Origin: a methanogenic archaeon ISO4-H5
Lineage (GTDB): Archaea; Thermoplasmatota; Thermoplasmata; Methanomassiliicoccales; Methanomethylophilaceae
DNA length: 64,000 nt
Assembly: GCA_001560915.1 (NCBI GenBank)
Contig: CP014214.1
Location: 1,612,001-1,676,000 of the forward strand
Reading direction: 5' to 3'
Made by a program: the position numbers and the translations under genes. The notes beneath the pieces are model-generated. The model did not search any database, was not told where the DNA came from, and saw nothing but the letters and a program-made list of their open reading frames with translations. Each line of letters starts with the position of its first letter. The stretch's first letter is position 1. Positions 2,325 through 39,786 of this stretch are shown piece by piece.

Positions 2325-2392
2325 CATTGGATGGTTAGTCGATAATCTATCGCGAGTTTTATTATATTCTAATAAGACGAATATACCATCCA
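2325..2392 (+). promoter_or_regulatory. Promoter/operator of transporter operon A
   Basis: CATTGGATGGT (2325-2335) is followed by the palindrome CGATA-ATC-TATCG (2340-2352), then an AT-rich TATA-like box (about 2361-2368), then ACCATCCA (2385-2392), which is the exact inverse of TGGATGGT at 2328-2335. A GGAG ribosome site follows just before the ATG at 2409. The same arrangement stands before operon B (39703-39770) and, on the minus strand, before the surface-protein genes (29678-29757). It is probably one regulator's site; which regulator is unknown. Confidence 0.7.
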
Positions 2393-6118: not shown

Positions 6119-7500
6119 AGGTGACCCGCACCAAGATCCTCCTGACCGTCACTGTGCTGCTAGCGGTAGCGGTGCTCACTCCAGCGATGGGACTGACCAA
6201 TGCGGAGCGCGACGGAAGGAGCGGCGTGGTGCTGGACTTCGGATATTGGAATACCGAATGGGTCACGATGGACTTCGGCGACGGAATGAACGGATACCAG
6301 GCGCTGGAGAAGGCCTGCGAGCTGAAAGGGTTCACGGTCACGTACACCGACGATGCACACACACAGGTGTACTCGGTGAACGACCAATCCAACCTCCAGG
6401 GCAAAAAATGGGGCATGTACACGCTGAGCGGAGGGAACTGGGTCCCATGCGACGATCCCTCGGATATCTCCCTGGGAAAGAAGGACATAATAACTTGGGC
6501 GAGAGCGAGCGATGCAGGAGATATAGTTCCCGGCACGGACCAATCCGGATTCTCATACTACGGCTACGCGGACAACGGTTACTCGCTCAGGACGGGCGAG
6601 AAGCTGAAGGTCGTCTCCCTGGCCCCGTCGGTCACCGAGACCATATGCGCAGTGGGCGGGCTGGACTACATAGTCGGCACCGATCTTTACAGCAACTATC
6701 CCGAAGGTGTCACACAGGCGAAGAACGACGGGAAGATCAAGAACGTCGGCGGATACTCGGATCCGAACTACGAATGGATCGTGAAATTAGGACCGGATGT
6801 GGTGTTCTGCGAGGGCGGTACGGGAGAACATGTTGCCATGGCCGACAAGCTCCGCAAATCGGGCATAGACTGCGTCGTCACATACGACGTCACCAACGTG
6901 GAGAAACTGTACGACAACATCTGGATCGTCGCATCGGCGATGGGACTCAGCGGGAACGCCAACTCCGTGATATCGGCCTTCAGAGGGACGATCGATGCGG
7001 TCGCGGGAGTCATCGGATACCAGGCATCGGTCAGGACGTTCGTGGCCCTGTCGGCGGATCCTTCCCCGTGGACATCCGGTTCCGATACCTTCGCATCCGA
7101 CATAATATCCAAGGTATCCGGCACCAACGTATTCGATTCCCAGTCATCATCATGGTTCATGGTATCGAAAGAGCAGATCCATTCCAAACAGCCTCAGGTG
7201 ATCATCATAGTCCATTCCGGCGAGATTACCACGCAGGAGCAGTACGACCAGGTGATGGGGTGGATCGACCCCGTATGGCAGGAGACCCCCGCATACAGGA
7301 ACGGAAACGTGTATCTATTCACTGGGAAGGCCGCGGACCTGCTGTCCAGACCCGGTCCGAGACTGTGCGAGGCGGCAGAACTCCTGGGAAAGGCCCTGCA
7401 CCCGGACTCGTTCCTGCAGAGAGATCCTTTAGATTCCATCCCCAAGTACCTGGGGAACGACTACGACATCTATCTGACGTATCAGAGGGCGATAGCATGA
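6115..7500 (+). CDS. DUF4430-BtuF fusion: substrate-binding protein of a B12/Fe-type ABC importer (operon A, gene 3)
   Basis: This 461-residue secreted protein has a signal peptide (1-28), a DUF4430-like domain (about 35-145, with GYQALEKACELKGF and KWGMYTL) and a class III periplasmic-binding domain (Peripla_BP_2, about 160-435). The second domain begins VVSLAPSVTETICAVGG, as in BtuF/FhuD-type proteins, and contains VGGYSDPNYEWIVKLGPDVVF-type core strands. It would deliver ligand to the permease two genes on. Joining DUF4430 to a BtuF domain ties the DUF4430 proteins directly to import. It overlaps both neighbours by 4 bp. Cobalamin/corrinoid is the favoured substrate; iron chelates or haem cannot be excluded. 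Confidence 0.88.
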   Translation: MKVTRTKILLTVTVLLAVAVLTPAMGLTNAERDGRSGVVLDFGYWNTEWVTMDFGDGMNGYQALEKACELKGFTVTYTDDAHTQVYSVNDQSNLQGKKWGMYTLSGGNWVPCDDPSDISLGKKDIITWARASDAGDIVPGTDQSGFSYYGYADNGYSLRTGEKLKVVSLAPSVTETICAVGGLDYIVGTDLYSNYPEGVTQAKNDGKIKNVGGYSDPNYEWIVKLGPDVVFCEGGTGEHVAMADKLRKSGIDCVVTYDVTNVEKLYDNIWIVASAMGLSGNANSVISAFRGTIDAVAGVIGYQASVRTFVALSADPSPWTSGSDTFASDIISKVSGTNVFDSQSSSWFMVSKEQIHSKQPQVIIIVHSGEITTQEQYDQVMGWIDPVWQETPAYRNGNVYLFTGKAADLLSRPGPRLCEAAELLGKALHPDSFLQRDPLDSIPKYLGNDYDIYLTYQRAIA

Positions 7501-9344
7501 AGAAGACCGCCATCATCATCCTGGTTCTCATGACCGCACTGGTGGTCGTCCCCGTCTCGTCGGCGGATTCGTCCGAGGATACCGTTCTGGTGGATTTCGG
7601 CAACGGTTCGTACAAATGGTATAGCAACAACGGCGGAGGCACCTTCAATGCCGTGCTGGATTCCTCCGTCGATGCAGGTACCGCGGATACGATCAGGAAC
7701 GTCAGCACGTCGGATTGCAAATGGAGACTATTCGTATGGAACGGCAGCTGGGAGGATAAAGGCACCTCCCTCTCCGCTTCCTGCTCCGGCACGGTAGCGT
7801 ACGGATACTATCCCGAAGGGTTCGCTCCCGTCTCCACCCCCGAATATAGGGATTCATGGACAACACTGGGCGGATCCTCGACGGCCTCCAACATATCGGT
7901 CTCGCACGGACAGAGGAATCCCAAGGTCCCCGTGGAATGGTACAACACCTACACCACGGGATACGTCGATTCAGGACTGGTCGTTGCCGGCAATATGCTG
8001 TACCACACAACAGGCGGAGTCTACGAGGGAGCGGGGGAAGATGCAGATGCCTGGGTCTATGCTCTCGACAGGTTCTCCGGTTCCGTCGTGTGGAAATACC
8101 ACGGCGTCAAAGGGGCAGGATACGAGGTCACTACACCGCTGATCGTCGGCGACTACCTCATCGTCACGTTCACCTGCGGCGATGTGGTCTGTTTCGACCG
8201 CTTCACAGGAACCATAAAGGACAAGATGACTGTGGACAACACCCCGCCGTTGGACAGCGACGGCAACGTCGTCTGGAACGGAAGAACGTTCTACACCGGC
8301 GGAACAACGCCTGTGTATGATTCAGGAAGGATCTATTTCGGAACATCCGCAGGCACCGTCTTGTGCCTGCAACTTTCTGCATCGGGGACTTTCTCCACCG
8401 CATGGGAATACGTCCCGCCGTCAACTGTCGAGGACAACCATTACACGGGCACCCGCGGATGCTTCTACTTCCACGCACCCACCGTCTACACCGTGGACGG
8501 ACAGAGGATGCTGTTCATCGGCAATTACGACGGCTATGTCCACGCGGTGAACGCGGATACTGGTGTAATGATATGGGTGAGGAGGGTCATCGACATGTCC
8601 GCCGATAACCGCGCCGCTCCCGGTACCCCTGGTTCCGCAGCATCAGTATCCATGTCACCCGACGGTTCGCATCTGCTGGTGGGATGCACCGACGGGGCAT
8701 TGTTCTCCCTGGAAGGATACCTGTTGGCACTCGATCCGCTCACCGGGAATGAAATGACGCGGTCCGACAGCACCGCCTGGAAACTAGACGGGCTGTTCAC
8801 ATCGCCGGTCATCACCGTTGATGGATTCTACTCCTACGTTTCCCCGCTCTCGGCGGGTTCGGACATCTTCCCGAAAGCCGACGGAAGCAGCGACGCGGTC
8901 ACGAATTCCGTCTACTTCTTCAACTGGGACGGGAAGGTAGTATGGAAGACAGGGGAGTATCAAATGATCAAGGGTGCCCTGACAATGGATGCCGACGGCA
9001 TCCTGTACGGCACCGACTATTCCGCCGGGAGCTTCTGGCCCACCGGCGGCGCTCTGACCGCCTGGGACTCCAGCAACGGTTCGGAAATCTGGAGGGTCCT
9101 GCTCTCACCCTACACCCAGGACTCGTATTCCATGGTACAGCCCACCGTCATCGACGGCAAGATCTACACCGGCAACGACTACGGTGCGGTATACTGTCTC
9201 AGCGACATCAAGGGCGAAGGTACCGAAGAGGAGAGGGTCCAGGCACTGCAGTCGGTGGGATTCGCGCATTGGTCGTGGTATCTCACAGTCGCGGTTGCCG
9301 CCATTACCATCGCGGGATTCACCATATTGTACAGGAGGGGCTGA
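7497..9344 (+). CDS. Membrane-anchored PQQ-like beta-propeller protein (operon A, gene 4)
   Basis: This 615-residue protein has a signal peptide (1-24, ending SSA), an N-terminal beta-domain resembling DUF4430 (about 30-120), a PQQ/BamB-like propeller (about 130-575, blades ending VWKYHG, GYVHAVNADTG, AVYCLSD) and a C-terminal transmembrane helix followed by YRRG (about 587-615), so the propeller faces outward. ATG 7497 overlaps the previous stop (ATGA) and matches the start of the copy B gene; the much longer open frame upstream only shadows genes 2 and 3. It directly precedes the permease and may dock the binding protein or hold a cofactor. Confidence 0.86.
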   Translation: MKKTAIIILVLMTALVVVPVSSADSSEDTVLVDFGNGSYKWYSNNGGGTFNAVLDSSVDAGTADTIRNVSTSDCKWRLFVWNGSWEDKGTSLSASCSGTVAYGYYPEGFAPVSTPEYRDSWTTLGGSSTASNISVSHGQRNPKVPVEWYNTYTTGYVDSGLVVAGNMLYHTTGGVYEGAGEDADAWVYALDRFSGSVVWKYHGVKGAGYEVTTPLIVGDYLIVTFTCGDVVCFDRFTGTIKDKMTVDNTPPLDSDGNVVWNGRTFYTGGTTPVYDSGRIYFGTSAGTVLCLQLSASGTFSTAWEYVPPSTVEDNHYTGTRGCFYFHAPTVYTVDGQRMLFIGNYDGYVHAVNADTGVMIWVRRVIDMSADNRAAPGTPGSAASVSMSPDGSHLLVGCTDGALFSLEGYLLALDPLTGNEMTRSDSTAWKLDGLFTSPVITVDGFYSYVSPLSAGSDIFPKADGSSDAVTNSVYFFNWDGKVVWKTGEYQMIKGALTMDADGILYGTDYSAGSFWPTGGALTAWDSSNGSEIWRVLLSPYTQDSYSMVQPTVIDGKIYTGNDYGAVYCLSDIKGEGTEEERVQALQSVGFAHWSWYLTVAVAAITIAGFTILYRRG

Positions 9345-10481
9345 ATGGCTGAAAAAGGAAGACTGTTCACTTCGCTGAAGAAGGGATACAAAGGACTGAA
9401 GGAGGATATCGGAGCGCAGGACGAATCCGAGATCGCCAGGAAGAAGAAGAGATTCGTCCTGATCGTGATCTTCGGACTGATCATGTCCGTGATAGCGTTC
9501 CTGATATCGATATCCATCTCATCCGGAGGGGTGATTCCGGTATCCGAAGCGGTATCGGCACTGTTCTCATCGATAGGGAAGGCCTTCAACGGGGACAAGA
9601 ACCTCGATATGATCGAACTGTACATCTACAACGCCAGACTGCCCAGGACCATCGCCGCCATCGCTGTCGGTGCTGGACTGGCGGTCGCGGGATGCATGTA
9701 CCAGGCCATCATCCGCAACCCTCTGGTGGATCCCTACATCACCGGAGTGTCCTCTGGTGCCGGATGTCTCGCCATGGCTGCCACCGCACTCGGATTCAGC
9801 ATACCCTTCCTTGCTGACAACACCCTGTACATCATACCCGTCGTGGCCATCATCGGAGGTATCGCGGCATTCTTCATCACCATGACCGTGGCAGAAGGTT
9901 CCGGAGGATCCTCCATCAACTACATCCTGGCTGGAACCATCGTCGGTTTCGCGTTCTCATCCGTGCAGACAATCTTCATGAGCATGGGCAAGGACAACCT
10001 CACCGATGTCATGTGGTGGCTGTACGGCTCGTTCGCCAACATAACCTGGGAGAACGCTTGGATCATATTCATCCCCGCGATGGGCATCGCCATCGTGGCC
10101 ATGATTTGGGCAAGGGAGTTCAACCTCTATTCGATGGGGGAGGACCAGGCCGCACAGCTCGGACTGAACGTCAAGAGATTCAAGAGACTCACCATGATCA
10201 CCGCATCCATCCTCACCGCGCTCTGCGTTGCCTTTGTGGGGATTATCGGATTCGTGGGATTGGTTGTCCCGCACGCATGCCGTATGGCCCTGGGAAGCGA
10301 CCACAGGCTCATCATGCCCGCATCGGTAGTCATCGGTGCGATGCTGATGCTCTTCGCCGATCTTGTGGCCAGAACAGTCATGTCCCCTGCGGAACTGCCC
10401 GTCGGTGCCATCACCGCGATCATCGGTACGCCAGTATTCGCCTACATGCTCATGAAGAGGGGGCGCAACTATGACGGATGA
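9345..10481 (+). CDS. FecCD/BtuC-type ABC transporter permease (operon A, gene 5)
   Basis: This 378-residue integral membrane protein belongs to the FecCD family (vitamin B12, siderophore, haem). A basic cytoplasmic N-terminus (about 1-35) precedes roughly ten hydrophobic helices. Family signatures include RLPRTIAAIAVGAGLAVAG, NPLVDPYITGVSSGAG, and a late GLVVPHACR segment before the last helices. The ATG follows the previous stop without a gap, and the ATPase gene starts 11 bp before its end. The copy B protein differs at only about ten positions by eye. Confidence 0.93.
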   Translation: MAEKGRLFTSLKKGYKGLKEDIGAQDESEIARKKKRFVLIVIFGLIMSVIAFLISISISSGGVIPVSEAVSALFSSIGKAFNGDKNLDMIELYIYNARLPRTIAAIAVGAGLAVAGCMYQAIIRNPLVDPYITGVSSGAGCLAMAATALGFSIPFLADNTLYIIPVVAIIGGIAAFFITMTVAEGSGGSSINYILAGTIVGFAFSSVQTIFMSMGKDNLTDVMWWLYGSFANITWENAWIIFIPAMGIAIVAMIWAREFNLYSMGEDQAAQLGLNVKRFKRLTMITASILTALCVAFVGIIGFVGLVVPHACRMALGSDHRLIMPASVVIGAMLMLFADLVARTVMSPAELPVGAITAIIGTPVFAYMLMKRGRNYDG

Positions 10482-11271
10482 GATTCCTCTCCTTAAGATA
10501 CAGGGTCTGGTTAAGGACTTCGGGGATTTCAGAGCCCTCAAGGGCATCGACCTCGAATTCGGAAGAGGTCTTTTGGTAGGTCTAATCGGCCCTAACGGAT
10601 GCGGAAAATCGACGATGATGAAATGTATCAGCCGCTTGCACCCGCAGACCTCCGGTACCATCGAGGTCGACGGGAAGGATGTGACCTCGCTTAAACCTGC
10701 AGAAGTGGCCAAGATCGTTGCCACCGTTCCCGCCGAAGCGGGTCAGACCTTCGGTATAAGCGTCATGGATATGGTAATGCTCGGTCGTTATCCTTTCGTC
10801 GAGAAGATCTGGTGGGAGAATCCCGAGGACGAGAGGGTCACCATCGAAGCTATGCGCACATTCGGCATCGACCATCTCAGGAGAAAACAGGTCGCCCTGT
10901 GTTCATCGGGTGAAAGGCAGCGTGCCCTCATCGCAAAAGCGTACGTACAGCAGCCCAAGCTCATGCTGGTGGACGAACCCACATCCCATCTGGATATGAA
11001 ATACAAACTGCAGGTCATGGAATACCTGCAGAAGATGGCCAGAACCGACATGACAGTAATCGTTGCGGAGCACGACATCTCCCTGATGGCCAGATACTGC
11101 GACATCTGCGTCATCATGAAGAAAGGTGAGATCGTAGCGGTAGGCGACCCGAAAGTCATCATCACCGAGGACCTCATACGCGATGTGTACGACGTGGAGG
11201 CACGCGTAGGGCTGGATGTCGACGGGGAGATCTATGTCCTGCCGAAAAGATATGTCGAAGGAAGCTTATGA
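10471..11271 (+). CDS. BtuD/FepC-type ABC transporter ATPase (operon A, gene 6)
   Basis: This 266-residue nucleotide-binding subunit pairs with the FecCD permease. Walker A is GPNGCGKS (about 41-48), the signature motif is CSSGERQR in place of LSGGQ, Walker B is LMLVDEPTSHLD, and the switch histidine lies in VAEHD. It starts within the permease gene (11-bp overlap). The operon appears to end here: 370 bp without a gene follow. Confidence 0.94.
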   Translation: MTDEIPLLKIQGLVKDFGDFRALKGIDLEFGRGLLVGLIGPNGCGKSTMMKCISRLHPQTSGTIEVDGKDVTSLKPAEVAKIVATVPAEAGQTFGISVMDMVMLGRYPFVEKIWWENPEDERVTIEAMRTFGIDHLRRKQVALCSSGERQRALIAKAYVQQPKLMLVDEPTSHLDMKYKLQVMEYLQKMARTDMTVIVAEHDISLMARYCDICVIMKKGEIVAVGDPKVIITEDLIRDVYDVEARVGLDVDGEIYVLPKRYVEGSL

Positions 11272-17785: not shown

Positions 17786-20506
17786 TTACTGTCCCTTCCT
17801 CGCGTACGGCACCATGATGCACAGACAGAGGATTACGATCAGCCCCAATGTGAAGAGGACCGCGTACGGGAGTGCGTCAGATGACAGATCCTCATCCACG
17901 ATGGTGTAGAGCGAGAAGTGGTCGAGGACCATGGTCATCTCCCCCTTTTCCGCGTCGTAACTCTGTTCCGCGACCTTCGTCCTATTGCCGTTCTCGTCGA
18001 CGTAGTATGCCACAGGGGTCTTTCCATCCGTAGCTGCATGCTTCACGGTGACGATGACTTTCCCGCCGAGATCTTTGCCGATGCTCTGTCCAGCAGATGT
18101 GGCGGTGAGATTCACGACGGTGGAACCCACCTCGATGACCTCGCGCTGTGCGGAGGTCATGGAGGATCTGTCGGCAATGGCGAAGGACAGTGTTACATCG
18201 TCCTTATCGGATAATGAGGACAGGGCATCCTTCCCGAAGGTCATAGTGCCCTGGGTGGAGACCATCCTGAGGCTGGCGTTCTCCTCGGCCATGTCACTGA
18301 GGGATTCCTTGCCGACGGATGCGGAGACGTCGGAGGTGTCCGAGGTGATTTCGATGACCCTGTCCTTCTCTGCTCCGACTGCATCGGCGACCGCAGCCTG
18401 CTGCTGCAGGGCGGCCTGGACGGATCCGTCGGAAACGACGTAGCTTCCGTCCTCTCCGTCCGCCTTCACGCTGGTTATAATCTCGGAGTCCGTCGACACG
18501 GCGGTGGTGTGCACCTTACCGTCGGCGGATATGGAGCCTGCGGAGACCTCGGTGACGGTCTTCCCGTCGGATGTGGTCTCCGTGGTCCTGACGACCGTGC
18601 TGGAACCGTCCGCCTGTTTGACGGCGGTCTCCGAGACGCTCACGGTCGTCGTGTTGCCGGATGAATCCGTAACCGTGGACTCGGTCTGGGTCTCGGTGGT
18701 CCTGACACCGTCGACGGTGGCGTCCGTCACGGTGGTGACTGTCTCCGTGGTCTGCACGGTGTTTCCGGAGGCGTCCTTGGACGTCTCGGTGCTGGTGGTA
18801 ACGGTGCCGTTCGCGGTCTGTTCGACGGTGGTGACTGTCTCCGTGGTCTGCACGGTGTTTCCGGAGGCGTCCTTGGACGTCTCGGTGCTGGTGGTAACGG
18901 TGCCGTTCGCGGTCTGTTCGACGGTGGATACGGTCTCCGACGAGGTGCCATCGGAGTTGGTGGAAGTGCTCTCTGTGGTCTTCGAACCATTGGCGTCCAC
19001 GGTGGTGACGGAACTGGTGGTCGACGAGGAACCGTCGGGGTTGGTCACCGTCGTGTTCTCGGTGATGGTAGTCGTTCCGTCCTCGTTCTCCTTGGTGGTA
19101 ATCTCCGATACGGTCTGGGTGCCGTCGATGACGGAGGTGGAATCCGCGATGACCGTGGTGGAACCGTCATCGTTCTCCTTCACCTCGATGGTGGTCTGCG
19201 AACCGGAATTGTCAAACTGTTCGGGGATCTCAGGTTCCTCCTCATCGGGGTGAAGGGCCTGTCCGCTCTCCTCTGTAATGCCGTAAAGCAAATGGAATTC
19301 TCCGCCATCGGTATAGAATCCGAGAGACCACTGATTATAGGCCTCATTCCCATCCACAATCTGGTACTGAATCCAATATTTCCATAGACCGCCCTCCATC
19401 TTGACATCGCCAAGACCGAAGATACCGTCGACCCAGTACTTTATGGACCCATCCTCTTTGGACCAGAACTGACATGGAATCTTTGCCTCGTTGAGGGCGG
19501 TCTCGAGGGCCTCTCCCGCGTTGGTCCCGACGGCGGTTAGGGTTATGCCCCTCCTGAGGTCGGAAGCGGTAAGGCCCGAGGTTCCGTAATCCGCTTTGTC
19601 GTAGTCATACTCCATACGGAGCGTGAAAGTATACTCGGAATCATGCGGCGGTATCTCGTTCACCGTTACGCTGAATTCCACTACAGAATCTCCGACGGAC
19701 GCTGTGACCTTCGTTTCTCCGACGGCTTTTCCGGTAATGGTCAGGTTTCCAGTTTCCGTGGAGAATTTGATAGTCGCTATCTCTGCATTCTCAGGATATA
19801 TCTGCAGATCAGCATAGGTGCATCCGATGACATTCAGATGGACAGTCTCGGATTCGCCCTGTATCATCGTTACAGTCGAATCGGAATCGGTGGTGACCCT
19901 GCGTACCTGTACGGTTGCATCCTTGTGAACAGAGGTCTCCCCGGCGAGGGCCACTGAGACCCTCAGATCAGAGGTGAGCGTTGTTCCGGGAGATACGGAC
20001 GCGGAGAACCTGCGGTCGTCGCCGCACTTGATGGGCGCTCCGTCGACCAGCACATTGTCGGACATGTCACGGATGGTGAGTTCCAGATCTTCGTCGGATG
20101 CCCATCCCGTGACGGTGACCTTACCGGAGTCGTAAGAATACTCGGCCGAATCCAGGAACAGATACCCGTCGACACGGAAATCGCCGACTATGTAATCGGT
20201 GGGGTCGTCGACGGACATAGCGATTATCCTGTAGACGCCTCTGGCGAGTTTGCCTACGGCAATCTCACCTGAGAATCCACCGTTGTTTAGCTGGAATACG
20301 GTCTCCCCGGAGTAGTATCCGTTCGCATGTACTGAGACTGAAACATCGCTGTCGAAGGTGCCTGCGAATGACACCTTGCCACTGGCGGGGTCGTAACTGG
20401 CACTTGTGAATGATGGTTCTCCTGTGGCGCTGCTGAGTGGAGCCGAAACCGTTAGCATGAATATCGCTAACAGGACTGACAATACTGCAATCGTCCTTCC
20501 TCTCAT
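17786..20506 (-). CDS. DUF4430 surface protein with Ser/Thr-rich stalk and membrane anchor
   Basis: This 906-residue protein has a signal peptide (1-28), two beta-domains (about 30-195) like those at the N-terminus of the upstream gene's product, a BIG2-like domain (about 200-285), a DUF4430 domain (about 290-420, with GEALETAL, LWKYWIQYQ and WSLGFYTDGG), a long Thr/Ser-rich stalk (about 430-650) with 32-residue repeats, a C-terminal beta region and a transmembrane helix ending YARKGQ. Stalk and C-terminus are nearly identical to those of the giant protein at 56376-63770. ATG 20506 overlaps the previous stop (ATGA). Last gene of a four-gene operon. It may bind the same ligand as the uptake-operon proteins. 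Confidence 0.85.
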   Translation of the reverse strand: MRGRTIAVLSVLLAIFMLTVSAPLSSATGEPSFTSASYDPASGKVSFAGTFDSDVSVSVHANGYYSGETVFQLNNGGFSGEIAVGKLARGVYRIIAMSVDDPTDYIVGDFRVDGYLFLDSAEYSYDSGKVTVTGWASDEDLELTIRDMSDNVLVDGAPIKCGDDRRFSASVSPGTTLTSDLRVSVALAGETSVHKDATVQVRRVTTDSDSTVTMIQGESETVHLNVIGCTYADLQIYPENAEIATIKFSTETGNLTITGKAVGETKVTASVGDSVVEFSVTVNEIPPHDSEYTFTLRMEYDYDKADYGTSGLTASDLRRGITLTAVGTNAGEALETALNEAKIPCQFWSKEDGSIKYWVDGIFGLGDVKMEGGLWKYWIQYQIVDGNEAYNQWSLGFYTDGGEFHLLYGITEESGQALHPDEEEPEIPEQFDNSGSQTTIEVKENDDGSTTVIADSTSVIDGTQTVSEITTKENEDGTTTITENTTVTNPDGSSSTTSSVTTVDANGSKTTESTSTNSDGTSSETVSTVEQTANGTVTTSTETSKDASGNTVQTTETVTTVEQTANGTVTTSTETSKDASGNTVQTTETVTTVTDATVDGVRTTETQTESTVTDSSGNTTTVSVSETAVKQADGSSTVVRTTETTSDGKTVTEVSAGSISADGKVHTTAVSTDSEIITSVKADGEDGSYVVSDGSVQAALQQQAAVADAVGAEKDRVIEITSDTSDVSASVGKESLSDMAEENASLRMVSTQGTMTFGKDALSSLSDKDDVTLSFAIADRSSMTSAQREVIEVGSTVVNLTATSAGQSIGKDLGGKVIVTVKHAATDGKTPVAYYVDENGNRTKVAEQSYDAEKGEMTMVLDHFSLYTIVDEDLSSDALPYAVLFTLGLIVILCLCIMVPYARKGQ
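18735..18926 (-). repeat. Two 96-bp tandem repeats in the Thr/Ser-rich stalk
   Basis: The unit starting GTGACTGTCTCC at 18735 is repeated at 18831 (offset 96 bp = 32 residues, EQTANGTVTTSTETSKDASG core). The copies look identical. A homologous pair lies at 57328-57519. In-frame gain or loss of units would change the stalk length. Confidence 0.8.
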
Positions 20507-23500
20507 GCTGTCGCCTCCCTTTCGATCATGACGTAGCCCAGGTTGCCCTCTACGTGTTCATCGACTATGCGTATGTACATCAGTCTGATGTTCGCAGCAT
20601 TCAGAGAACCGGATGCCAGACCGTTTGTTCCTGTGGTCTTAATATCGGTCAGTACCCTGCCGTCAGAGGTCATTGCGGTCACCTTGATGCTCAGTCCGTC
20701 TGTAGTACCGATTCCGGTTCTGATGTCCACGTCTGCGGACCATGTGGTGACGCCGTCGGAGACATCCATGGTTCCTGAGATGACGTATCCTGCCGGGAGT
20801 TCCTGCCAGCTGAGATAGAATGTCGCATCGGAAGATATTGTCTGTCCGTATATGTCCGCGACCTCCTCGCCGGAAGCGTTCTTCCAGATCGGAACGTATC
20901 CAACCTTGACCACTTCAGGGAAGTGCACCTTAGCTTCGGAACCCCTCTTCACGATGGACGCGGTCCCGGGGATCTCGGTATTGTCCTCTACGAATCTGAT
21001 GTACACGACATCGGTACCTCTGCTGAGCTGTTTGCCGATGATGCTCCTGTCGCCGATGTTGTCGGCGAAGGTGTAGGTCTTGGTCTCTCCGTTGTCGATG
21101 TGTGTGAACACATCACCTGGTGAGACGGAGCTTCCGTTTCCGCAGATGATGCGGAAGTAGTGGTTCAGTGAATAGGATGTGTCGCCCAGGTTGGTTATGT
21201 TGACCCATGAATACTGGTCGAGATTATTGAACTGACCATTGTTGTCCGTGGTTCCGTAAGTGGCCTTCAGCATCTGCAGGGTTATTTCATCGGTGACGGA
21301 GTGACCGTTGACCGTTTGTATGATCTTGGCAGCGTTGAGCGTGGCCACGTTATCGCCTAAGGACGCGAGCGCATCGGCAGCATTGGCACCGTATACCCTG
21401 TACCAGATTGCGGAATCGCCGTCCTCGATGAAGAAGTAATAGACGTTCTTGTCTGATGTCGTGTACGAGTACAACCAACCGGAGTCGTTATACCACAGCA
21501 TCCTTCCGTCGATGTCGGAACGGATGGCCTGGGAATTCCATTCCCTCTCGGTCGAATAGAGTGGCATCGACGAAGCCGTTCCGGCACGATCTACGGCAAT
21601 CCAAAGAGTTTCGTTATAGTGGGTGTCGTATGGTATGCCGTATGCATAAATTGGCGACCCTTCCTCCTCTATGTGACTGACATCCAGAACAAAATTGCCA
21701 TGACCTCCGACCAAAGTGGTGGACCTGTGCACCAAATTGTCAAGATTGAGGTTGGTCATATCGTTTGGTAACTCAAAGACAAGAAGAGAGCCTCCGAGAG
21801 TAACGAAAGCCCTCCCGTCATAAACGGCCATTCTGCCTGAGAATGTGCGCGGGGTGGACTCATAATATCTCTCCTCACCGAAAGTCATCCCTTCCACCGG
21901 GAGGTAGACGATTCTATCGCCGTTTGTGGATGCGACCGCTCCGAACAAACCTTCAGAATAAGCCGTTAGGAACAGATATCCGTTGTAATAAGACATCCAG
22001 CCGTCATCGAGATACATAGAAGTGATGCTGCTCAGATTCTTGTAACTCGATTCGCCAGTCATCAAATTCATTGCTGCTACGCCCCTGTTGTTTCCTTCAG
22101 CCGTGATGCAGTACAGAATATTGCCGACGAATTCGTGGGAGAACGTTCCGTATGAACCGTATATGTTGTCAATCGCCCCTACATATTCGAGACTCTTGGT
22201 CTCCCCAACAATGGAGAGATCTTCATCCACGGGGTCGAAGGAATATACCTTCTCTCCAAGGACATAGAATGATCCGTTGTAGTAATACGCGGAGGATATG
22301 CTTCTGTCCAGAATATATAGTTGATTCAGATCCAGATCATAGACCTTTGATGAATTGTAATCTATTATTACACCGTTACCATAGCCTAAGTGGTGATAGA
22401 AAACGGTACTGGATTGAGAATCCACACGCTTAACCACATACCCTGTATCAGACTCGACCTTGTACAAACTCTCAGCGATACGAATATAAGTGAAATTATC
22501 AACAACCAGCGGTACTGATACCGTACCTTTCCATGTTGACATAGAAGTGTCCACATACCCGCCCAACACATAGGATCTTACCAACTCCGAGATATCATCC
22601 ATAGTGGGCAATCCTGTGTTGTTGATGGAATTGATATCTGAACTCAAGGAATAGTAACGGTATGTCAATGTAATCTCGGTGTCAGAACTGAGATTACTTA
22701 ACACCAACGGTTCCGATGCCGAACCGCGACTGGCTCCGTTAACAACCCAGCTGACCAGTTCATATCCTGGCCTGGGTTCGGCTACTAACTCCAGCTGACC
22801 GCCGGAATAGAGAATGGTACTGCTGGACACTTCACCCCCGAGATATATCATGGCGGATGATTGATCCAGTTTGATGATCGGCGCACGCTGTTTCCATACC
22901 TGCTTCAGGACCATGTCCCTGTCTACGACTGATCCTATTGTGTAATTGTCTCCGTTCTCATCAACCCACCCGTCTGCCATGTGCAGCGGGTTATAGAAAA
23001 CAGGCACACATAACTGATCGATGGCAGAACCTTCACTAACACTCAACGTCACAATGCCGTCACCTTCATGAGTAGTGCCGCCACAACCATCGAATTGTAC
23101 CGTGAATGTCCTATCAGACTCTTTCAGGGCACTCATCATTTTCAATATTACGATTGACTGAGCCCCGGAATAGTTGGTGATTGTCACCCTATTACCATCG
23201 GTACTTACACAGGCACCCATGGCGATGTAATCAACCTCATCAGAAACCAATCCAGAGGATGTAATGTCGGCAGAGAAACTGTTGTCGGTTGTGACAATGT
23301 TGTCCAGGTGGATTGCAGATCCGTGGTATGTGACTGGCACATAGATTACTCTGTTTCCCGAAGTGTAACCAACATAAACATCACCTGCACCCATAAGGTA
23401 CAACAAATCTTCCTGCGACAATGTATTGGGTACATAGAACGAGATTCCTTCCGGTACTGAGGAGAAAACCTGCGGGATGCTCCAAGAAGTTGGATTTGTT

Positions 23501-25728
23501 GTTATGAATACACTTCTTAGATTATTCGACCCTTCTATCAGCGAATTCTCGATGCGAATGTTGGGATTGTCAATGTACAGTGTCTTAAGCGAATCGGATA
23601 GCGAATCGGCGGCGATTATTGTCCCAGATGTCAGTTCTGAACCGAATCTTATTGAGGTCTTACTTGTAATGTAAAGGATTTTGTTCTGAACGCCGTCATT
23701 TATTGTCAGAACGCCGTCGATATAACGGAAGTACGGGTTGGATGAACTGCATGTTATCGTTATGCTGTCAGACAAACAAGTCACATTACCAAAATTATCT
23801 CTTGGTAAAGCGATTGCGACCGTGTCTGCCCCTATATCCAGTCTGTTATTGCTGATCTTTGCCACAGGTGCCCCATCGATCACAGTGAATCCTGTATATT
23901 TCACAAAGAACAGACCGACAGGTGATTTGACTGGGGACCGATCGGCATACAACTGATTGAGTTCGTGACAATTTGACAGATCCACCAAACGATATAGATC
24001 CGATGGACTGACCTCTTTCAGTATTTGTAACCTAGAGTTACTTTCGAAGGATATTATATTAGATAAACCTGAAAAAGCATACTCCCCTACAGATTCTACA
24101 CTTGCTGGAACTGTCAATTCGATATCACTCATCCCTTTGACATTACCAGGTTGACCATTGCACTTGAATGCCCCGTCCTCAATTGTTTTTATGGAGGAGG
24201 GCAGAATCAGATTGTTGTTACCGACATTCAAACACCCGTTAAATGAACCCGCCCCAATCGATTCGAGAATGTGACACTCGCTGAGATCTATCTTGTTGAA
24301 TGCTTTGCCTTCAAAGCATTTTGGTTCAACCCTGGTTAAGGTATTGTTGGATTGGAATACCAACTCATACTCGGATATCGACTCCGTAAGGAAATTGGTT
24401 CCTTTTGTATACCCGATCAGACCCGCGAATGTATTCTTTCCAGGCTCCTGTGTCGTTGTTGCTGGTTGAACATATGCGAAAGCTGAATGCCCGATATAAC
24501 CGACGGTTCCGGGGATGTGGGTGATTTTTCCGTTCTCGTCACCGATCAACATTGAAAAAATACTGCAATTGGCAAAACAACCGTCACCTATGGAATACAG
24601 ATTGAATTGATTGTCAAAGCGAACTGTACCCAAACTACTGGAATAGAAACATCCTTTTTCCAAAGAACACGAATAACCGTCTGCCGAAGAACCGAATTGA
24701 ACGTCCCTCAAACTTGGGTTGTTGCTGAATGCGAACTGCCCAATAGTCTGAATCTTGGAATTTGACTGGAATTCGACATGACTGAGATTGGGGCAGTTAT
24801 AGAATGCCTTTACCCCAATGGTCCTGACAGATGACGGAATCACCAATCTTTCGATGTCAGTACACGCGAAAAGATAATCCGGAATCGTAGTTACTCCGTC
24901 TTGTATTTCCAATTCGGTTATACCTGCGATCTGCATCGGGAACATGTTGTCTTTGATTGTGATGTTCCATTCGAGATCCTTGGTCAGGACCAACTTATCA
25001 ATGTTCGAATTGTCGAAGGCACTATCCGCAATCTCCTCGACATGACTTGGGATCACATATTCAGACCCGTTCACGACTCTGCAAACGATGAGGATCTTTC
25101 CGTCCTCGCTATATGTCGATTGGTCCATCGGTTCCCCGTCGACTGAGAATGTGGTCGTACGTTCAGAACGCACTCCCATTACCTTCAAGGTGTAATCGCC
25201 GCCTTGCAGTTCCCCTAAATTAACGATTTCACTGAAACTGCCAGATTGAGGAATTGAGGCGATTATCACTGAACGGTAGTCATCGTTGTAAACTACAGCG
25301 TTTAGGAGACTGGCATTGGTCTCACCACTGTACCTCAGAAGACCATCCTCGAACGAAACAGATGTTATTGCAATGTACTCCTCGCCGACCAGGAACGTCC
25401 TGGATACGATCGTCTGGTTGTACGAGGCACGTAACTCGTAACGTCCTTCCTCAAGTACGCCGACGTTCACTGTTCCGGAATAAGAGCCGTTTTCGACTAT
25501 ACTTGCATCTATGACGGACGAATATCCCGTCCCATCTGCGGAATACAATCTGAGATTCACAATCCCTGTTGTCGACGTACCTGAATACGAAAGGTTTCCA
25601 CCATCGTACACTGGAACATCAAGTGTTATCACTGGTTGATCTCCATCCGCATCGGAATACCCAGGTATTGCCATCAACAAACAGCATGCCAATGTCAACG
25701 CCATTACGATGATTGTGCCGCGGTACAT
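20503..25728 (-). CDS. Giant secreted LRR / InlB / beta-propeller / DUF4430-like protein
   Basis: This 1741-residue extracellular protein has a signal peptide (1-27), two beta-domains (about 30-195), BspA-type leucine-rich repeats (about 215-620), further beta regions, an InlB-type repeat (about 885-965), a propeller-like part (about 1080-1430) and a DUF4430-like domain (about 1435-1570, SYSLNHYFRII), then one more beta-domain. No C-terminal anchor is seen, so it may be held by its partner at 17786-20506, whose start overlaps its stop. Together the two proteins match the domain order of the single giant at 56376-63770. It is somewhat more AT-rich than the transporter genes. Confidence 0.82.
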   Translation of the reverse strand: MYRGTIIVMALTLACCLLMAIPGYSDADGDQPVITLDVPVYDGGNLSYSGTSTTGIVNLRLYSADGTGYSSVIDASIVENGSYSGTVNVGVLEEGRYELRASYNQTIVSRTFLVGEEYIAITSVSFEDGLLRYSGETNASLLNAVVYNDDYRSVIIASIPQSGSFSEIVNLGELQGGDYTLKVMGVRSERTTTFSVDGEPMDQSTYSEDGKILIVCRVVNGSEYVIPSHVEEIADSAFDNSNIDKLVLTKDLEWNITIKDNMFPMQIAGITELEIQDGVTTIPDYLFACTDIERLVIPSSVRTIGVKAFYNCPNLSHVEFQSNSKIQTIGQFAFSNNPSLRDVQFGSSADGYSCSLEKGCFYSSSLGTVRFDNQFNLYSIGDGCFANCSIFSMLIGDENGKITHIPGTVGYIGHSAFAYVQPATTTQEPGKNTFAGLIGYTKGTNFLTESISEYELVFQSNNTLTRVEPKCFEGKAFNKIDLSECHILESIGAGSFNGCLNVGNNNLILPSSIKTIEDGAFKCNGQPGNVKGMSDIELTVPASVESVGEYAFSGLSNIISFESNSRLQILKEVSPSDLYRLVDLSNCHELNQLYADRSPVKSPVGLFFVKYTGFTVIDGAPVAKISNNRLDIGADTVAIALPRDNFGNVTCLSDSITITCSSSNPYFRYIDGVLTINDGVQNKILYITSKTSIRFGSELTSGTIIAADSLSDSLKTLYIDNPNIRIENSLIEGSNNLRSVFITTNPTSWSIPQVFSSVPEGISFYVPNTLSQEDLLYLMGAGDVYVGYTSGNRVIYVPVTYHGSAIHLDNIVTTDNSFSADITSSGLVSDEVDYIAMGACVSTDGNRVTITNYSGAQSIVILKMMSALKESDRTFTVQFDGCGGTTHEGDGIVTLSVSEGSAIDQLCVPVFYNPLHMADGWVDENGDNYTIGSVVDRDMVLKQVWKQRAPIIKLDQSSAMIYLGGEVSSSTILYSGGQLELVAEPRPGYELVSWVVNGASRGSASEPLVLSNLSSDTEITLTYRYYSLSSDINSINNTGLPTMDDISELVRSYVLGGYVDTSMSTWKGTVSVPLVVDNFTYIRIAESLYKVESDTGYVVKRVDSQSSTVFYHHLGYGNGVIIDYNSSKVYDLDLNQLYILDRSISSAYYYNGSFYVLGEKVYSFDPVDEDLSIVGETKSLEYVGAIDNIYGSYGTFSHEFVGNILYCITAEGNNRGVAAMNLMTGESSYKNLSSITSMYLDDGWMSYYNGYLFLTAYSEGLFGAVASTNGDRIVYLPVEGMTFGEERYYESTPRTFSGRMAVYDGRAFVTLGGSLLVFELPNDMTNLNLDNLVHRSTTLVGGHGNFVLDVSHIEEEGSPIYAYGIPYDTHYNETLWIAVDRAGTASSMPLYSTEREWNSQAIRSDIDGRMLWYNDSGWLYSYTTSDKNVYYFFIEDGDSAIWYRVYGANAADALASLGDNVATLNAAKIIQTVNGHSVTDEITLQMLKATYGTTDNNGQFNNLDQYSWVNITNLGDTSYSLNHYFRIICGNGSSVSPGDVFTHIDNGETKTYTFADNIGDRSIIGKQLSRGTDVVYIRFVEDNTEIPGTASIVKRGSEAKVHFPEVVKVGYVPIWKNASGEEVADIYGQTISSDATFYLSWQELPAGYVISGTMDVSDGVTTWSADVDIRTGIGTTDGLSIKVTAMTSDGRVLTDIKTTGTNGLASGSLNAANIRLMYIRIVDEHVEGNLGYVMIEREATA

Positions 25729-25737
25729 TTTAGGACC

Positions 25738-28332
25738 TCATACCATGTATGTACCAACCCCATAGAATGTTACATCCAGTGTTTGAATTCCATCGACGAC
25801 CTCTACAATCACACATGACAAGTCCTGTTTCGACAAAACAATCCTATCGGTACCAGTGTTACCATCCATCACAGGTTTACTGTAGAAGTTGAATACATAG
25901 TATTGTCCGGAATATTTCGCAATCACCAACAGACGCATATCCTCGAGATTAGCTGCATTCGCACTCTTCTGTATCCCTATGTCCAACACAGCATTCGCTG
26001 AATCCGACACAGTTCCGTTGTACTGTACAGACAAGACATAGTCCTGGTCATGAGATGCGGTCGGAGACACACCGTTCACAATATTCACGTTGAATCTGTA
26101 AGTTGCATTACCCACGACCACAGTTACCTCGTGTAGTCCGTTTGTTAACGTTCCATTGTCTGTGGTTATCGGAATCTGCACAAATCCATTATTTACAGTT
26201 TTACTGACTGTATCATCCTCTGGGATGTTAAAAACTATGCCTGCGCAGGTCATTTCAGTCGGCACTGTATTTATTCCACGGATTGTTATGTAATGTACAC
26301 CGGTAGAACAAATAGTCGCATCCAGTTCCAATGGATTGGTGGCTTCACCACTCAAATCGACAATCCCCTCGCTATATCCCGCAACGTACACCGTCAAAGA
26401 AGCTACTGAACCCATCGAAAACAAGTGACCAGTCTGATTATCAACTGAAATTGTAATCACAGAAGCAACGGGCAATTGTTCATTAACAATGAGGTAAACA
26501 GTTGCATATCCAATCGTTCCAGTAGCTCTGTATATCAACACATCAACATCAGAAGAGATCGTTCCATTGATTTTCACAGTTATCGAAGAGGCGTCAACCG
26601 TACCTCCAGTAGTGTTCACACCCATCGTATTTGACCATTTGACGGTATAAGAATTAACACTAATCGGAATCTCATAAGCAATAGCTGCGGAATTGCCTAT
26701 TACCTCATAATTAAACGAAACAGGAACAGCGACCCATACGGCAGTCAGAGTCACATCTGATGTGCCCATGGTGTATGCCACGCCCGCATTGTACGTATTC
26801 GTTCCGTCATTCCATCCGCCGAACATAAACCCATCCTTGGTCCCATCATAGGATGCGACTGTGAATGTTCCTCCCTCTGCGACATCTGCTTGAGTCGGTG
26901 CGATTCCTGAGCCCTCATTCAAAACATATGTCACATGATGCTTAACAACCTGTGGCTGCGAGCTGTCGGTTACATTCAAAGTTACGGTGTACGGAGTTTC
27001 TCCATCGTTTAATGTGAAACTGTACGCACCTGTCTCCACATTCTGCAAATCCAGTTTGACATAATACAACCCCGACCACTTTGTGTTAATAGTGCCCATC
27101 GCACTGACCCAATCCAAATTGGAATTGGGGGTGTAGTCCGTCCCCACACTCAGGCCCTTCACCCAAATATACTGTATATCGCCACCTCTAAGATCGATAT
27201 TGATCGGACTGGCGAGATCTGCGGCATCCACGATCTGCGATACCGATCCGGCTGTGACGAAATAGAAGCTTTTACTTCCGACCTTTGCCTGGTACCTCTC
27301 ATCTGCGCTGAGGCTTCCATTCACGGTGAAACTTATGGTGACTTTATTGTTACCCGCGTCCCTGGAAGTTATATCGGCAGTCATATTCGATACTGTTGCA
27401 CCACCGGAGGTAGAGAATGCGGGGGTGTATTTCTTAAAATTAGTTCCAGAAGGGGCGCTCACAGCAGAGGCATCATCATTAGCATTCAATGTGCACTCTA
27501 CGCTGAACTCTGTTGAATCCAAAGAAATCGGTGACAGGATATACATGTTGCCCGATGACAGATCGACGGAATAATCAGGCAATGCCTGTGGCTGCGAGCT
27601 GTCGGTTACATTCAAAGTTACGGTGTACGGAGTTTCTCCATCGTTTAATGTGAAACTGTACGCACCTGTCTCCACATTCTGCAAATCCAGTTTGACATAA
27701 TACAACCCCGACCACTTTGTGTTAATAGTGCCCATCGCACTGACCCAATCCAAATTGGAATTGGGGGTGTAGTCCGTCCCCACACTCAGGCCCTTCACCC
27801 AAATATACTGTATATCGCCACCTCTAAGATCGATATTGATCGGACTGGCGAGATCTGCGGCATCCACGATCTGCGATACCGATCCGGCTGTGACGAAATA
27901 GAAGCTTTTACTTCCGACCTTTGCCTGGTACCTCTCATCTGCGCTGAGGCTTCCATTCACGGTGAAACTTATGGTGACTTTATTGTTACCCGCGTCCCTG
28001 GAAGTTATATCGGCAGTCATATTCGATACTGTTGCACCACCGGAGGTAGAGAATGCGGGGGTGTATTTCTTAAAATTAGTTCCAGAAGGGGCGCTCACAG
28101 CAGAGGCATCATCATTAGCATTCAATGTGCACTCTACGCTGAACTCTGTTGAATCCAAAGAAATCGGTGACAGGATATACATGTTGCCCGATGACAGATC
28201 GACGGAATAATCCGCTGACTGCGTAGCTTCTGATTCTCCTGGGATGCACATCCCCAGTGAGACAGACAAAACAAGCGATACCGCAATTATGGCTAAAATT
28301 TTTTCCTTGATGATCCCGCCCCCACACAGCAT
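25738..28332 (-). CDS. Secreted repeat protein with a perfect internal duplication
   Basis: This 864-residue protein has a signal peptide (about 8-36), two copies of a 212-residue beta-rich unit (about 40-465, beginning DYSVDLSSGNMYILSP), one InlB-type repeat (about 467-535) and further beta-domains up to the C-terminus. No transmembrane anchor or recognised catalytic motif is seen. ATG 28332 has no clear ribosome site. It lies between the DUF4430 protein (74-bp gap) and the giant LRR gene (10-bp gap) and belongs to the same operon. Function unknown; adhesion or ligand binding is likely from context. Confidence 0.78.
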   Translation of the reverse strand: MLCGGGIIKEKILAIIAVSLVLSVSLGMCIPGESEATQSADYSVDLSSGNMYILSPISLDSTEFSVECTLNANDDASAVSAPSGTNFKKYTPAFSTSGGATVSNMTADITSRDAGNNKVTISFTVNGSLSADERYQAKVGSKSFYFVTAGSVSQIVDAADLASPINIDLRGGDIQYIWVKGLSVGTDYTPNSNLDWVSAMGTINTKWSGLYYVKLDLQNVETGAYSFTLNDGETPYTVTLNVTDSSQPQALPDYSVDLSSGNMYILSPISLDSTEFSVECTLNANDDASAVSAPSGTNFKKYTPAFSTSGGATVSNMTADITSRDAGNNKVTISFTVNGSLSADERYQAKVGSKSFYFVTAGSVSQIVDAADLASPINIDLRGGDIQYIWVKGLSVGTDYTPNSNLDWVSAMGTINTKWSGLYYVKLDLQNVETGAYSFTLNDGETPYTVTLNVTDSSQPQVVKHHVTYVLNEGSGIAPTQADVAEGGTFTVASYDGTKDGFMFGGWNDGTNTYNAGVAYTMGTSDVTLTAVWVAVPVSFNYEVIGNSAAIAYEIPISVNSYTVKWSNTMGVNTTGGTVDASSITVKINGTISSDVDVLIYRATGTIGYATVYLIVNEQLPVASVITISVDNQTGHLFSMGSVASLTVYVAGYSEGIVDLSGEATNPLELDATICSTGVHYITIRGINTVPTEMTCAGIVFNIPEDDTVSKTVNNGFVQIPITTDNGTLTNGLHEVTVVVGNATYRFNVNIVNGVSPTASHDQDYVLSVQYNGTVSDSANAVLDIGIQKSANAANLEDMRLLVIAKYSGQYYVFNFYSKPVMDGNTGTDRIVLSKQDLSCVIVEVVDGIQTLDVTFYGVGTYMV
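26949..28212 (-). repeat. 636-bp tandem duplication, about 628 bp apparently identical
   Basis: The sequence 26949-27576 is repeated at 27585-28212 with an offset of 636 bp (212 codons). I found no mismatch where I compared them; similarity stops at A/C at 27577/28213. Identity at silent sites points to a very recent duplication or ongoing gene conversion. Confidence 0.9.
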
Positions 28333-28405
28333 AAGCCAGCCATAGTGACAACCAGCGTAATACTAAATTGAGGAAGAAAGGGGGCATTCGCCCCCGTTTA
28401 ATTAC

Positions 28406-29440
28406 TCAGGGATAGGTCTCCGTAAAGTAGGTGTAGTTGAACATCCCTCCGACGTTGTTATACGCACCGGTCAATTGTGAGTAATAACCGAAGTTAAAGC
28501 TCAGATACGGATTGTTAGGTGCACTTGACATCCAATACCAATACGTGCTGCCATTATCGAAGTTAGAGTCGGTACCAATTCCAAACAAACTCACGACCCA
28601 AGAGTAATAGGTGTAGTAGGAGTACTGATACACCTGATTTTCATTAAACACCTGGTGTTCTACCCATGCATCGATCTTGTTGTTGTTCATATTGTCGCTG
28701 ACGAGGCTGGCACCAACAGCATCGATCAAAGCAAGATAGGCATCTGATCCATACCCGTATACATCAAAGCTGTTGTTACCCTGTATATCGGATGCTGAAA
28801 TGAATACCGTGGTCCAAACTCCGTTTACCATCGTTTTAACAGGCACATTTGTGAATGAAACGCCTCTATCTCCACCGACAGAATCGTGGAGGGTGAACTT
28901 GTAAAGGGTATTCGAATGACCATGCACATCTCCAAGAGCAATCATCCCTGTGATGTCATCAACATCTTCATCCCCGGTTACAATTGCAACATTGGCCGAA
29001 GCAGAAATATCCGCATTGGGGACATTCACAATCGCACCGTAATCTGCGAATGGCCTTATCCATCCAAGTGATGAGGTGGTGACATCTACCCACTGGGATA
29101 CACCGTCATATGCATAAATTGTGAATGAACTAGAACCATTGATCTGCGTAATCATTCCATAATCCTTGTCTGGATTATAACCAGAAACCCAACTACCATT
29201 TGATGTGGATACGGTATACCCTAGAGTAGATTTAGCACCATCTATCGCCTGATATAAATTGTATGCATTCTGCGGAGAACAAGTCCATTCGTCTTCCACA
29301 ATGGAATAAACATTCACAGTCGGAGTCAAGTTCGTTGCTTCCGAGTCATCACTGTTCGTAATCACGAAAACGCCGGCCACCATGACCATGGCCGCAATCG
29401 CGATTGCAAACACACCAATTGTGTATTTCTTTGTATTCAC
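28406..29440 (-). CDS. Secreted DUF4430-like protein, first gene of the surface operon
   Basis: This 344-residue protein has an N-terminal signal/anchor helix (about 6-27), then DUF4430-like units: about 40-130 (YNLYQAIDGAKSTLGY, YGMITQINGSSSFTIYAYDG) and about 200-344, ending with the aromatic pattern STYWYWMSSAPNN and FNFGYYSQ, as in the uptake-operon DUF4430 protein. The GTG start at 29440 is supported by AGGTGAT eight bases upstream. A promoter/operator like that of the transporter operon lies about 250-320 bp upstream. Likely a surface binder of the same ligand class. Confidence 0.8.
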   Translation of the reverse strand: MNTKKYTIGVFAIAIAAMVMVAGVFVITNSDDSEATNLTPTVNVYSIVEDEWTCSPQNAYNLYQAIDGAKSTLGYTVSTSNGSWVSGYNPDKDYGMITQINGSSSFTIYAYDGVSQWVDVTTSSLGWIRPFADYGAIVNVPNADISASANVAIVTGDEDVDDITGMIALGDVHGHSNTLYKFTLHDSVGGDRGVSFTNVPVKTMVNGVWTTVFISASDIQGNNSFDVYGYGSDAYLALIDAVGASLVSDNMNNNKIDAWVEHQVFNENQVYQYSYYTYYSWVVSLFGIGTDSNFDNGSTYWYWMSSAPNNPYLSFNFGYYSQLTGAYNNVGGMFNYTYFTETYP

Positions 29441-29677: not shown

Positions 29678-29757
29678 CATTGGGTGAGCGTATACAATAT
29701 GCGTTGCACTAATATTTATTAAAACTCGCGATAGGTTATCGACCAGCCCATCCAATG
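29678..29757 (-). promoter_or_regulatory. Promoter/operator of the surface-protein operon
   Basis: Read on the minus strand: CATTGGATGGG, then the palindrome CGATA-ACC-TATCG (29741-29729), then GCGAGTTTTAATAAATATTAG (TATA-like box), then a partial inverse of the first element (ACCCAATGG at about 29684-29676). This matches the operators of transporter operons A and B in order and spacing. A further CATTGGATGG lies upstream at 29813-29804. It implies shared regulation of the surface and uptake genes. Confidence 0.68.
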
Positions 29758-39702: not shown

Positions 39703-39770
39703 CATTGGATGGTAGGTCGCTGATTTGTCGCGATTTTTATTATATTCTTATAAAACGCATATACCTTCCA
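39703..39770 (+). promoter_or_regulatory. Promoter/operator of transporter operon B
   Basis: CATTGGATGGT (39703-39713), then GGTCGCTGATTTGTCGCGA (inner palindrome weaker than in copy A), a TATA-like TTATTATATTC, and ACCTTCCA (39763-39770), a one-mismatch inverse of TGGATGGT. GGAGG stands 8 bp before ATG 39787. The changed inner palindrome may mean different regulator affinity from copy A. Confidence 0.66.
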
Positions 39771-39786
39771 GTTGGAGGATTCTTCC

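What the first reader, a model, noticed from the sequence alone, without database searches (positions are those of the whole stretch)
17786..29440. One aromatic module recurs in the uptake proteins and the giant surface proteins
The pattern W-x-Y-W ... W-x-x-GFY occurs in the operon DUF4430 proteins (WTYWSQY ... WALGFYD), in 17786-20506 and 56376-63770 (LWKYWIQYQ ... WSLGFYT) and, in weaker form, in 28406-29440 (YWYWM ... FNFGYYSQ). Combined with the shared operator, this suggests a multi-layer capture system in which long stalks present the same ligand-binding module far from the membrane.
Basis: partly seen in the sequence, partly recalled or inferred. Interest (0 to 1): 0.7.

Follow-up and report, generated by a model that had tools for sequence, protein, structure and literature searches.

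The report
Vitamin-B12-carrier-like domain on archaeal surface proteins
In a rumen methane-producing archaeon, one small domain with the fold of the B12-binding half of human intrinsic factor occurs in the vitamin-B12-type uptake operon and in giant stalked surface proteins that share its DNA switch, so the cell may catch B12-like molecules far from its membrane; the binding itself is not yet shown.

Summary
The W-x-Y-W...W-x-x-G-F-Y pattern marks one homologous domain in five window proteins: two operon proteins (5042, 42420), two stalked surface proteins (17786-20506, 56376-63803) and 28406-29440. An iterated profile converges on 66 members, all in Methanomassiliicoccales, the order of the source genome (closed, 1.94 Mb, size of isolate ISO4-H5). 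AlphaFold2 (pLDDT 91) gives a beta-grasp with a hairpin insert. The nearest solved folds are the cobalamin-binding beta domains of intrinsic factor, haptocorrin and transcobalamin (Z 9.6-11.3), then 3U7Z (9.3), then unrelated folds (4.9). Pfam DUF4430 does not reach it.

The genome holds eight copies. All lie beside or inside a BtuFCD-type transporter locus, or in the two surface-protein clusters that share the btu operons' operator. That operator occurs four times genome-wide, each time upstream of a module-encoding unit. Elsewhere one protein fuses the module to a BtuC-type permease.

Unproven are ligand binding and whether the aromatic residues line a pocket; several look like family scaffold. 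I judge it a new variant of the known transcobalamin-like SLBB/B12-uptake theme.

The parts
2329..2352 (+). Operator GGATGG-N3-GTCG...ATCG before btu operon 1
   Evidence: Pattern found only four times in the genome
2394..5045 (+). P0006, secreted protein with propeller-like part and List_Bact repeats; first gene of btu operon 1
   Evidence: Pfam Flg_new
5042..6118 (+). P0007, secreted tandem SLBB protein; first domain 5168-5449, motif module about 5564-6049
   Evidence: AF2 pLDDT 86, two beta domains like haptocorrin and intrinsic factor; profile hits
6115..7500 (+). BtuF-like binding protein with N-terminal DUF4430-like domain (6220-6510)
   Evidence: Pfam Peripla_BP_2; hhalign to DUF4430 94%
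7497..9344 (+). PQQ-type beta-propeller protein
   Evidence: Pfam PQQ_2
9345..10481 (+). BtuC-type permease
   Evidence: Pfam FecCD
10471..11271 (+). BtuD-type ATPase
   Evidence: Pfam ABC_tran; best NCBIfam model corrinoid ATPase, below cut-off
17786..20506 (-). P0001, anchored surface protein: module 19259-19675, Thr/Ser stalk 18347-19219, C-terminal membrane segment 17798-17881
   Evidence: AF2 pLDDT 91 and fold search; composition and hydropathy
20503..25728 (-). P0002, LRR_5 and propeller-like surface protein without C-terminal anchor, frame overlaps P0001
   Evidence: Pfam LRR_5; corresponds to the N-terminal part of P0005
25738..28332 (-). P0003, secreted repeat protein of the same cluster
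   Evidence: Pfam Flg_new
28406..29440 (-). P0004, tandem SLBB protein: first domain 29060-29326, divergent module 28415-28777
   Evidence: Profile hits
29729..29753 (-). Operator before the P0004-P0003-P0002-P0001 cluster
   Evidence: 23/24 core identity with the btu operon 1 site
39707..39730 (+). Operator before btu operon 2
39772..48649 (+). btu operon 2, duplicate of 2394-11271; module protein P0008 at 42420-43496 (module about 42942-43427)
   Evidence: 83% DNA identity over 2319-11265 / 39696-48643
56376..63803 (-). P0005, giant anchored protein: LRR, List_Bact repeat, propeller-like part, module 57867-58286, stalk 56934-57806, membrane segment 56385-56477; fused equivalent of P0002 and P0001
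   Evidence: its operator lies outside the window at genome 1680935

Best explanation
The module is a divergent transcobalamin-like SLBB (beta-grasp) domain that works as an extracytoplasmic corrinoid-capturing unit of a BtuFCD-type uptake system. The uptake operon encodes it as a tandem-SLBB secreted protein (P0007/P0008) next to a BtuF that carries a DUF4430-like domain of its own. A co-regulated surface-protein cluster puts the same module on a Thr/Ser-rich, membrane-anchored stalk (P0001, P0005). Inferred mechanism: the surface copies bind B12-type corrinoids outside the cell envelope, the ligand passes to SLBB proteins near the membrane and to BtuF, and BtuCD imports it. Shown here: the homology, the predicted fold and its closeness to B12-carrier beta domains, the operon and fusion linkage, and the shared operator. 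Inferred: corrinoid as ligand, hand-over, and the stalk as reach.
For: Fold: AF2 pLDDT 91, pTM 0.83; the best 15 PDB entries are B12-carrier beta domains plus 3U7Z, Z 9.3-11.3 against 4.9 for the next. P0007 is two such domains. BtuF N-domain is DUF4430-like by profile comparison. All eight module loci of the genome are in or beside BtuFCD-type loci or in the two operator-bearing surface clusters. Operator: four genome-wide matches, control zero. One 1193-aa frame joins SLBB, propeller, module and BtuC permease. The linkage recurs in other genera and in a second family. Hairpin Trp358 (98%) falls at the position of Tyr362 of transcobalamin and haptocorrin, a residue reported to contact corrinoids.
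Against: No binding data. BtuF, BtuC and BtuD fall below the curated B12-specific cut-offs, and other substrate models score about as well. CbiD is present, so the cell may make corrin itself. The alpha domain that completes the B12 site in animal carriers has no counterpart found here. The motif's Y-W Trp is invariant in DUF4430 domains in general, so it may be scaffold. No cobalamin riboswitch was found. Module-to-DUF4430 profile similarity is weak.
Confidence: 0.58

Rival explanations
1. The module is a docking domain. SLBB domains of P0001/P0005, P0007, BtuF and the propeller proteins hold one another in a surface complex around the transporter, and the ligand is bound only by BtuF or the propellers.
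For: Beta-grasp domains often mediate protein contacts (general knowledge); many different proteins of the system carry SLBB domains; the Y-W core is conserved across proteins of very different context; P0005 is a fusion of P0002-like and P0001-like proteins, so complexes are likely.
Against: The nearest folds are all B12 carriers or a DUF4430 protein, not docking domains; the hairpin position that meets the ligand in those carriers is an almost invariant Trp.
Confidence: 0.22
2. The system captures a ligand other than a corrinoid, such as haem, an F420 precursor or a siderophore-like compound, with the same layout.
For: Permease and ATPase score about equally with F420-0, B12 and iron models; CbiD suggests own corrin synthesis; Burroughs et al. 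raise the same caution for archaea (PMC1796856).
Against: The fold is that of B12-carrier beta domains; published work assigns BtuFCD of this order to B12 (PMC10804542); these methanogens depend on corrinoid methyltransferases (PMC5011839).
Confidence: 0.15
3. Adhesins that merely picked up a copy of a neighbouring domain through local duplication; capture plays no part.
For: The window is a segmental duplication (2319-11265 matches 39696-48643; 11622-15980 matches 50022-54366); LRRs suggest adhesion.
Against: Surface modules are only about 27-31% identical to the operon ones, so they are old. The arrangement recurs in other genera and another family; in L048-L050 a long module protein lies directly after BtuD. 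Btu and surface promoters share the operator core but not the flanks.
Confidence: 0.05

Closest known systems
Transcobalamin-like clade of the SLBB superfamily (Burroughs et al. 2007, PMC1796856)
   Same: Beta-grasp with hairpin insert; secreted or surface proteins; fusions with beta-propellers; operons with transporters; paralogous SLBB proteins in one operon
   Different: Those operons have CbiO/CbiQ-type transporters; this subfamily is below Pfam detection, was found only in Methanomassiliicoccales, is tied to BtuFCD, and sits on LRR/propeller proteins with Thr/Ser stalks under a shared operator
Intrinsic factor, haptocorrin, transcobalamin (beta domain; 2PMV, 4KKI, 2BB5)
   Same: Closest solved folds (Z up to 11.3); Y/F-W core and G..Y pattern; aromatic hairpin position
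   Different: No alpha/alpha-barrel domain found; about 10% identity; binding untested
BtuFCD next to adhesin-like proteins in isolate LGM-RCC1 (PMC10804542)
   Same: B12 transport genes adjacent to adhesin-like protein genes in the same order; capture role suggested there
   Different: That paper's passages read here name no shared domain, operator or permease fusion
Bacteroides BtuG surface B12-binding lipoprotein (from memory)
   Same: Surface proteins that hand B12 to a dedicated importer; BtuG is a beta-propeller, and propeller proteins occur in this operon too
   Different: Bacterial outer-membrane system with TonB-dependent BtuB; no SLBB stalk proteins known to me

Membership tests
Transcobalamin-like clade of SLBB superfamily | Beta-grasp fold with beta-hairpin inserted after the helix | tested here: met
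   AF2 model strands and helices in that order, pLDDT 91; predicted, not solved
Transcobalamin-like clade of SLBB superfamily | Closest solved folds are transcobalamin-type beta domains | tested here: met
   Z 9.3-11.3 for all 15 top entries, next 4.9
Transcobalamin-like clade of SLBB superfamily | Two conserved glycines (after strand 2; before strand 3) | tested here: inconclusive
   G327 98% after strand 2 and G364 94% before the long strand fit, but were not mapped residue by residue on a structure
Transcobalamin-like clade of SLBB superfamily | Binding of cobalamin or another soluble ligand | not testable with these tools
   Needs protein
Pfam DUF4430 (PF14478) | Score over the curated cut-off | tested here: not met
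   No hit in the scanned window proteins; one unrelated sub-threshold match in the genome. The BtuF N-domain is related by profile comparison
Transcobalamin / intrinsic factor / haptocorrin family | Alpha/alpha-barrel domain joined to the beta domain | tested here: not met
   No such Pfam domain in the module proteins scanned
BtuFCD corrinoid ABC importer | Binding protein, FecCD permease and ATPase in one operon | tested here: met
   Peripla_BP_2, FecCD, ABC_tran at 6115-11271 and 43493-48649
BtuFCD corrinoid ABC importer | Curated equivalog score for BtuF/BtuC/BtuD | tested here: not met
   All below cut-off; B12, F420-0 and iron models score alike

The most novel reading that the evidence does not exclude
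A surface-tethered corrinoid relay in archaea: intrinsic-factor-like domains on long anchored stalks catch corrinoids outside the cell and pass them through tandem SLBB proteins and SLBB-BtuF to BtuCD, all under one dedicated regulator.
Probability: 0.4. Interest if true: 0.8.

Novelty: new variant of a known kind. Interest (0 to 1): 0.62.

Why it matters
Giant adhesin-like proteins are abundant in gut methanogens, and their ligands are mostly guesses. Here a shared domain, a shared operator and a permease fusion give one class of them a concrete, testable job: capturing B12-type cofactors needed for methylotrophic methanogenesis. B12 exchange has been proposed to shape these methanogens' niches and methane yield in ruminants (PMC10804542). 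It would also extend the fold family of human intrinsic factor to an archaeal cell-surface uptake system.

Tried and rejected
Pfam and NCBIfam for DUF4430: no hit. HMM of the window modules against PDB sequences: only a chance hit. Direct module-to-DUF4430 profile comparison: weak, 3-9%; the link is by structure and, more weakly, via the BtuF and P0007 N-domains. Cobalamin riboswitch: none by Rfam in the window or L052. Operator conserved in relatives: only suggestive. G081 btu and surface-cluster promoters share 19/24 against a shuffle maximum of 17; in G077 and G016 btu versus surface cluster did not exceed shuffles. Residue-level pocket analysis was not possible because the models' coordinates are not returned. 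That local DNA duplication alone explains the recurrence was rejected on divergence and on recurrence in other genera.

Full report
Setting. The window is G000:C1:1612001-1676000 of a one-contig 1,937,883-base genome. The published size of the rumen methanogen ISO4-H5 is 1,937,882 bp (PMC5011839), so this is very probably that organism, order Methanomassiliicoccales.

Observation. Alignment of the five copies extends the motif over a whole domain with 15 invariant columns. A profile of these five finds 28 of 147 genomes of the order. A richer profile of 28 members finds 42 of 147, in 8 of 30 genera. Among 389 genomes sampled across the phylum, all 18 with a match lie in the same order. Iterated searching converges at 66 distinct members. 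The weak copy 28406-29440 is a true member and has the same two-domain layout as the operon protein.

Fold. The surface copy of P0001 was modelled from an alignment of 28 natural sequences: pLDDT 91, pTM 0.83, beta-grasp with a hairpin insert. Foldseek and VIA-align place it with the cobalamin-binding beta domains: intrinsic factor Z 11.3, haptocorrin 10.5, transcobalamin 9.6-10.0, then 3U7Z at 9.3, then a drop to 4.9. The operon protein P0007 models as two such domains (pLDDT 86): residues 12-104 of the model match haptocorrin (Z 8.7) and residues 120-303 match intrinsic factor (Z 8.1). The BtuF of the operon has an N-terminal domain that is DUF4430-like by sequence (hhalign 94%, E 8e-8) and related to the first domain of P0007 (96%, E 8e-9).

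Aromatic residues. Human carriers have F-W-Q-L, Y-W-Q-F and Y-W-E-L where ordinary archaeal DUF4430 domains have Y-W-Q-Y-Y-V-N-G, and the module has Y-W-x-Q-[YFW]. Their G-x-x-[x]-Y seems to correspond to L-G-[FY]-Y of the module. A different residue is a stronger ligand candidate: Trp358 in the hairpin, 98% conserved. Its pattern W-h-x-s-h-x-G lines up with F-I-x-S-I-N-G of DUF4430 and Y-L-T-S-V-M-G of transcobalamin; by my count from the C terminus that Tyr is Tyr362. Tyr362 is listed among the bulky beta-domain residues that contact corrinoids in haptocorrin, and is the one kept in transcobalamin (PMC4350170); the hairpin is described as stacking on the base of cobalamin (PMC1796856). This is a pattern alignment made by eye; no coordinates were available to check a pocket.

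Genomic context. The genome has eight module loci. Two are in the duplicated btu operons. One (1827.6 kb) lies beside a third BtuF-PQQ-BtuC-BtuD locus (L052). One is part of a 1193-aa frame with SLBB, propeller, SLBB, SLBB and BtuC permease next to a BtuF. Four are in the two surface-protein clusters: P0004 and P0001; and a P0004-like protein plus P0005. The genome has 18 BtuC homologues; the four closest to the window copy, itself included, are the ones with modules. In other genomes the same genes recur: P0006-like, P0007-like, BtuF, PQQ, BtuC, BtuD in L039, L040, L043 and L057; the P0004/P0003/P0002/P0001 cluster near them in L038/39; P0004-, P0002- and P0001-like genes in L040/41; and long module proteins directly after BtuD in L048, L049 and L050. 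Module regions without BtuFCD in the stretch read also exist (L047, L053, L055, L056).

Operator. Upstream regions share CATTGGATGG-N3/4-GTCG...TATCGCGA followed by a TATA-like A/T stretch. A relaxed pattern with 16 fixed bases occurs four times in the genome (control 0): before btu operon 1, before btu operon 2, before the P0004 cluster, and at 1680935, upstream of the cluster that ends in P0005. Three of these built the pattern, so the fourth is the independent hit. The two btu sites are duplicates of each other and so are the two surface-cluster sites; the independent fact is that btu and surface promoters share a 23/24 core while their flanks differ. At the fourth site a DDE transposase gene lies between operator and cluster, so its present function is unsure.

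Surface presentation. P0001 and P0005 share the module, a stalk of about 290 residues with 40% Thr+Ser and under 1% aromatic residues, and a C-terminal hydrophobic anchor. P0002 lacks an anchor and overlaps the P0001 frame; P0005 corresponds to P0002 and P0001 fused (23.6% identity over 1468 columns, E 4e-55; 82% over the last 669 residues). P0001-P0002 is therefore probably one surface complex.

Mechanism and confidence. Capture of a corrinoid by the surface module, passage to P0007 and SLBB-BtuF, then import, is the reading that joins most facts (0.58). A docking role without direct ligand contact (0.22) and a non-corrinoid ligand (0.15) remain open. CbiD is present, so the cell may not depend wholly on uptake.

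Prior knowledge. SLBB domains in surface proteins and in transport operons were described in 2007 (PMC1796856). BtuFCD next to adhesin-like proteins was noted in 2024 with a suggestion of B12 capture (PMC10804542). New here, as far as the papers searched show, are the shared domain that ties them together, its restriction to this order in the searches made, the four-site operator and the permease fusion. I place it as a new variant of a known kind.

Noticed in passing
window 2319-15980 vs 39696-54366 (also 1-364 vs 37630-37993, 17892-19628 vs 56485-58239): Segmental duplication of the btu operon and its downstream genes at 78-83% DNA identity. The module-stalk part of P0001/P0005 is more alike (87%) than the operons, suggesting gene conversion.
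   Followed up: partly
window 26949-27576 and 27585-28212: Two 100% identical 628-base copies in tandem inside P0003: a very recent duplication or an assembly effect.
   Followed up: no
L126 829-2409 (genome 1675829-1677409), directly upstream of P0005: A secreted 527-aa protein with both a cohesin and a dockerin type I domain by Pfam, next to the giant surface protein; cohesin-dockerin assembly of the surface complex is possible.
   Followed up: no
L126 4105-5709 (genome 1679105-1680709): A DDE transposase gene lies between the fourth operator and the P0004-like/P0005 cluster, perhaps cutting that cluster off from its promoter.
   Followed up: no
L127 6906-10484 (genome 1380906-1384484): One 1193-aa frame joins SLBB domains, a propeller and a full BtuC-type permease.
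   Followed up: partly
window 11606-12931, 13088-13828, 13830-14411 and copy at 50042-51331: Multi-zinc-ribbon proteins, a DUF4443 winged-helix protein and an LRR_5 protein follow the btu operon here and in several other genomes; the DUF4443 protein is a candidate for the regulator that reads the operator.
   Followed up: no
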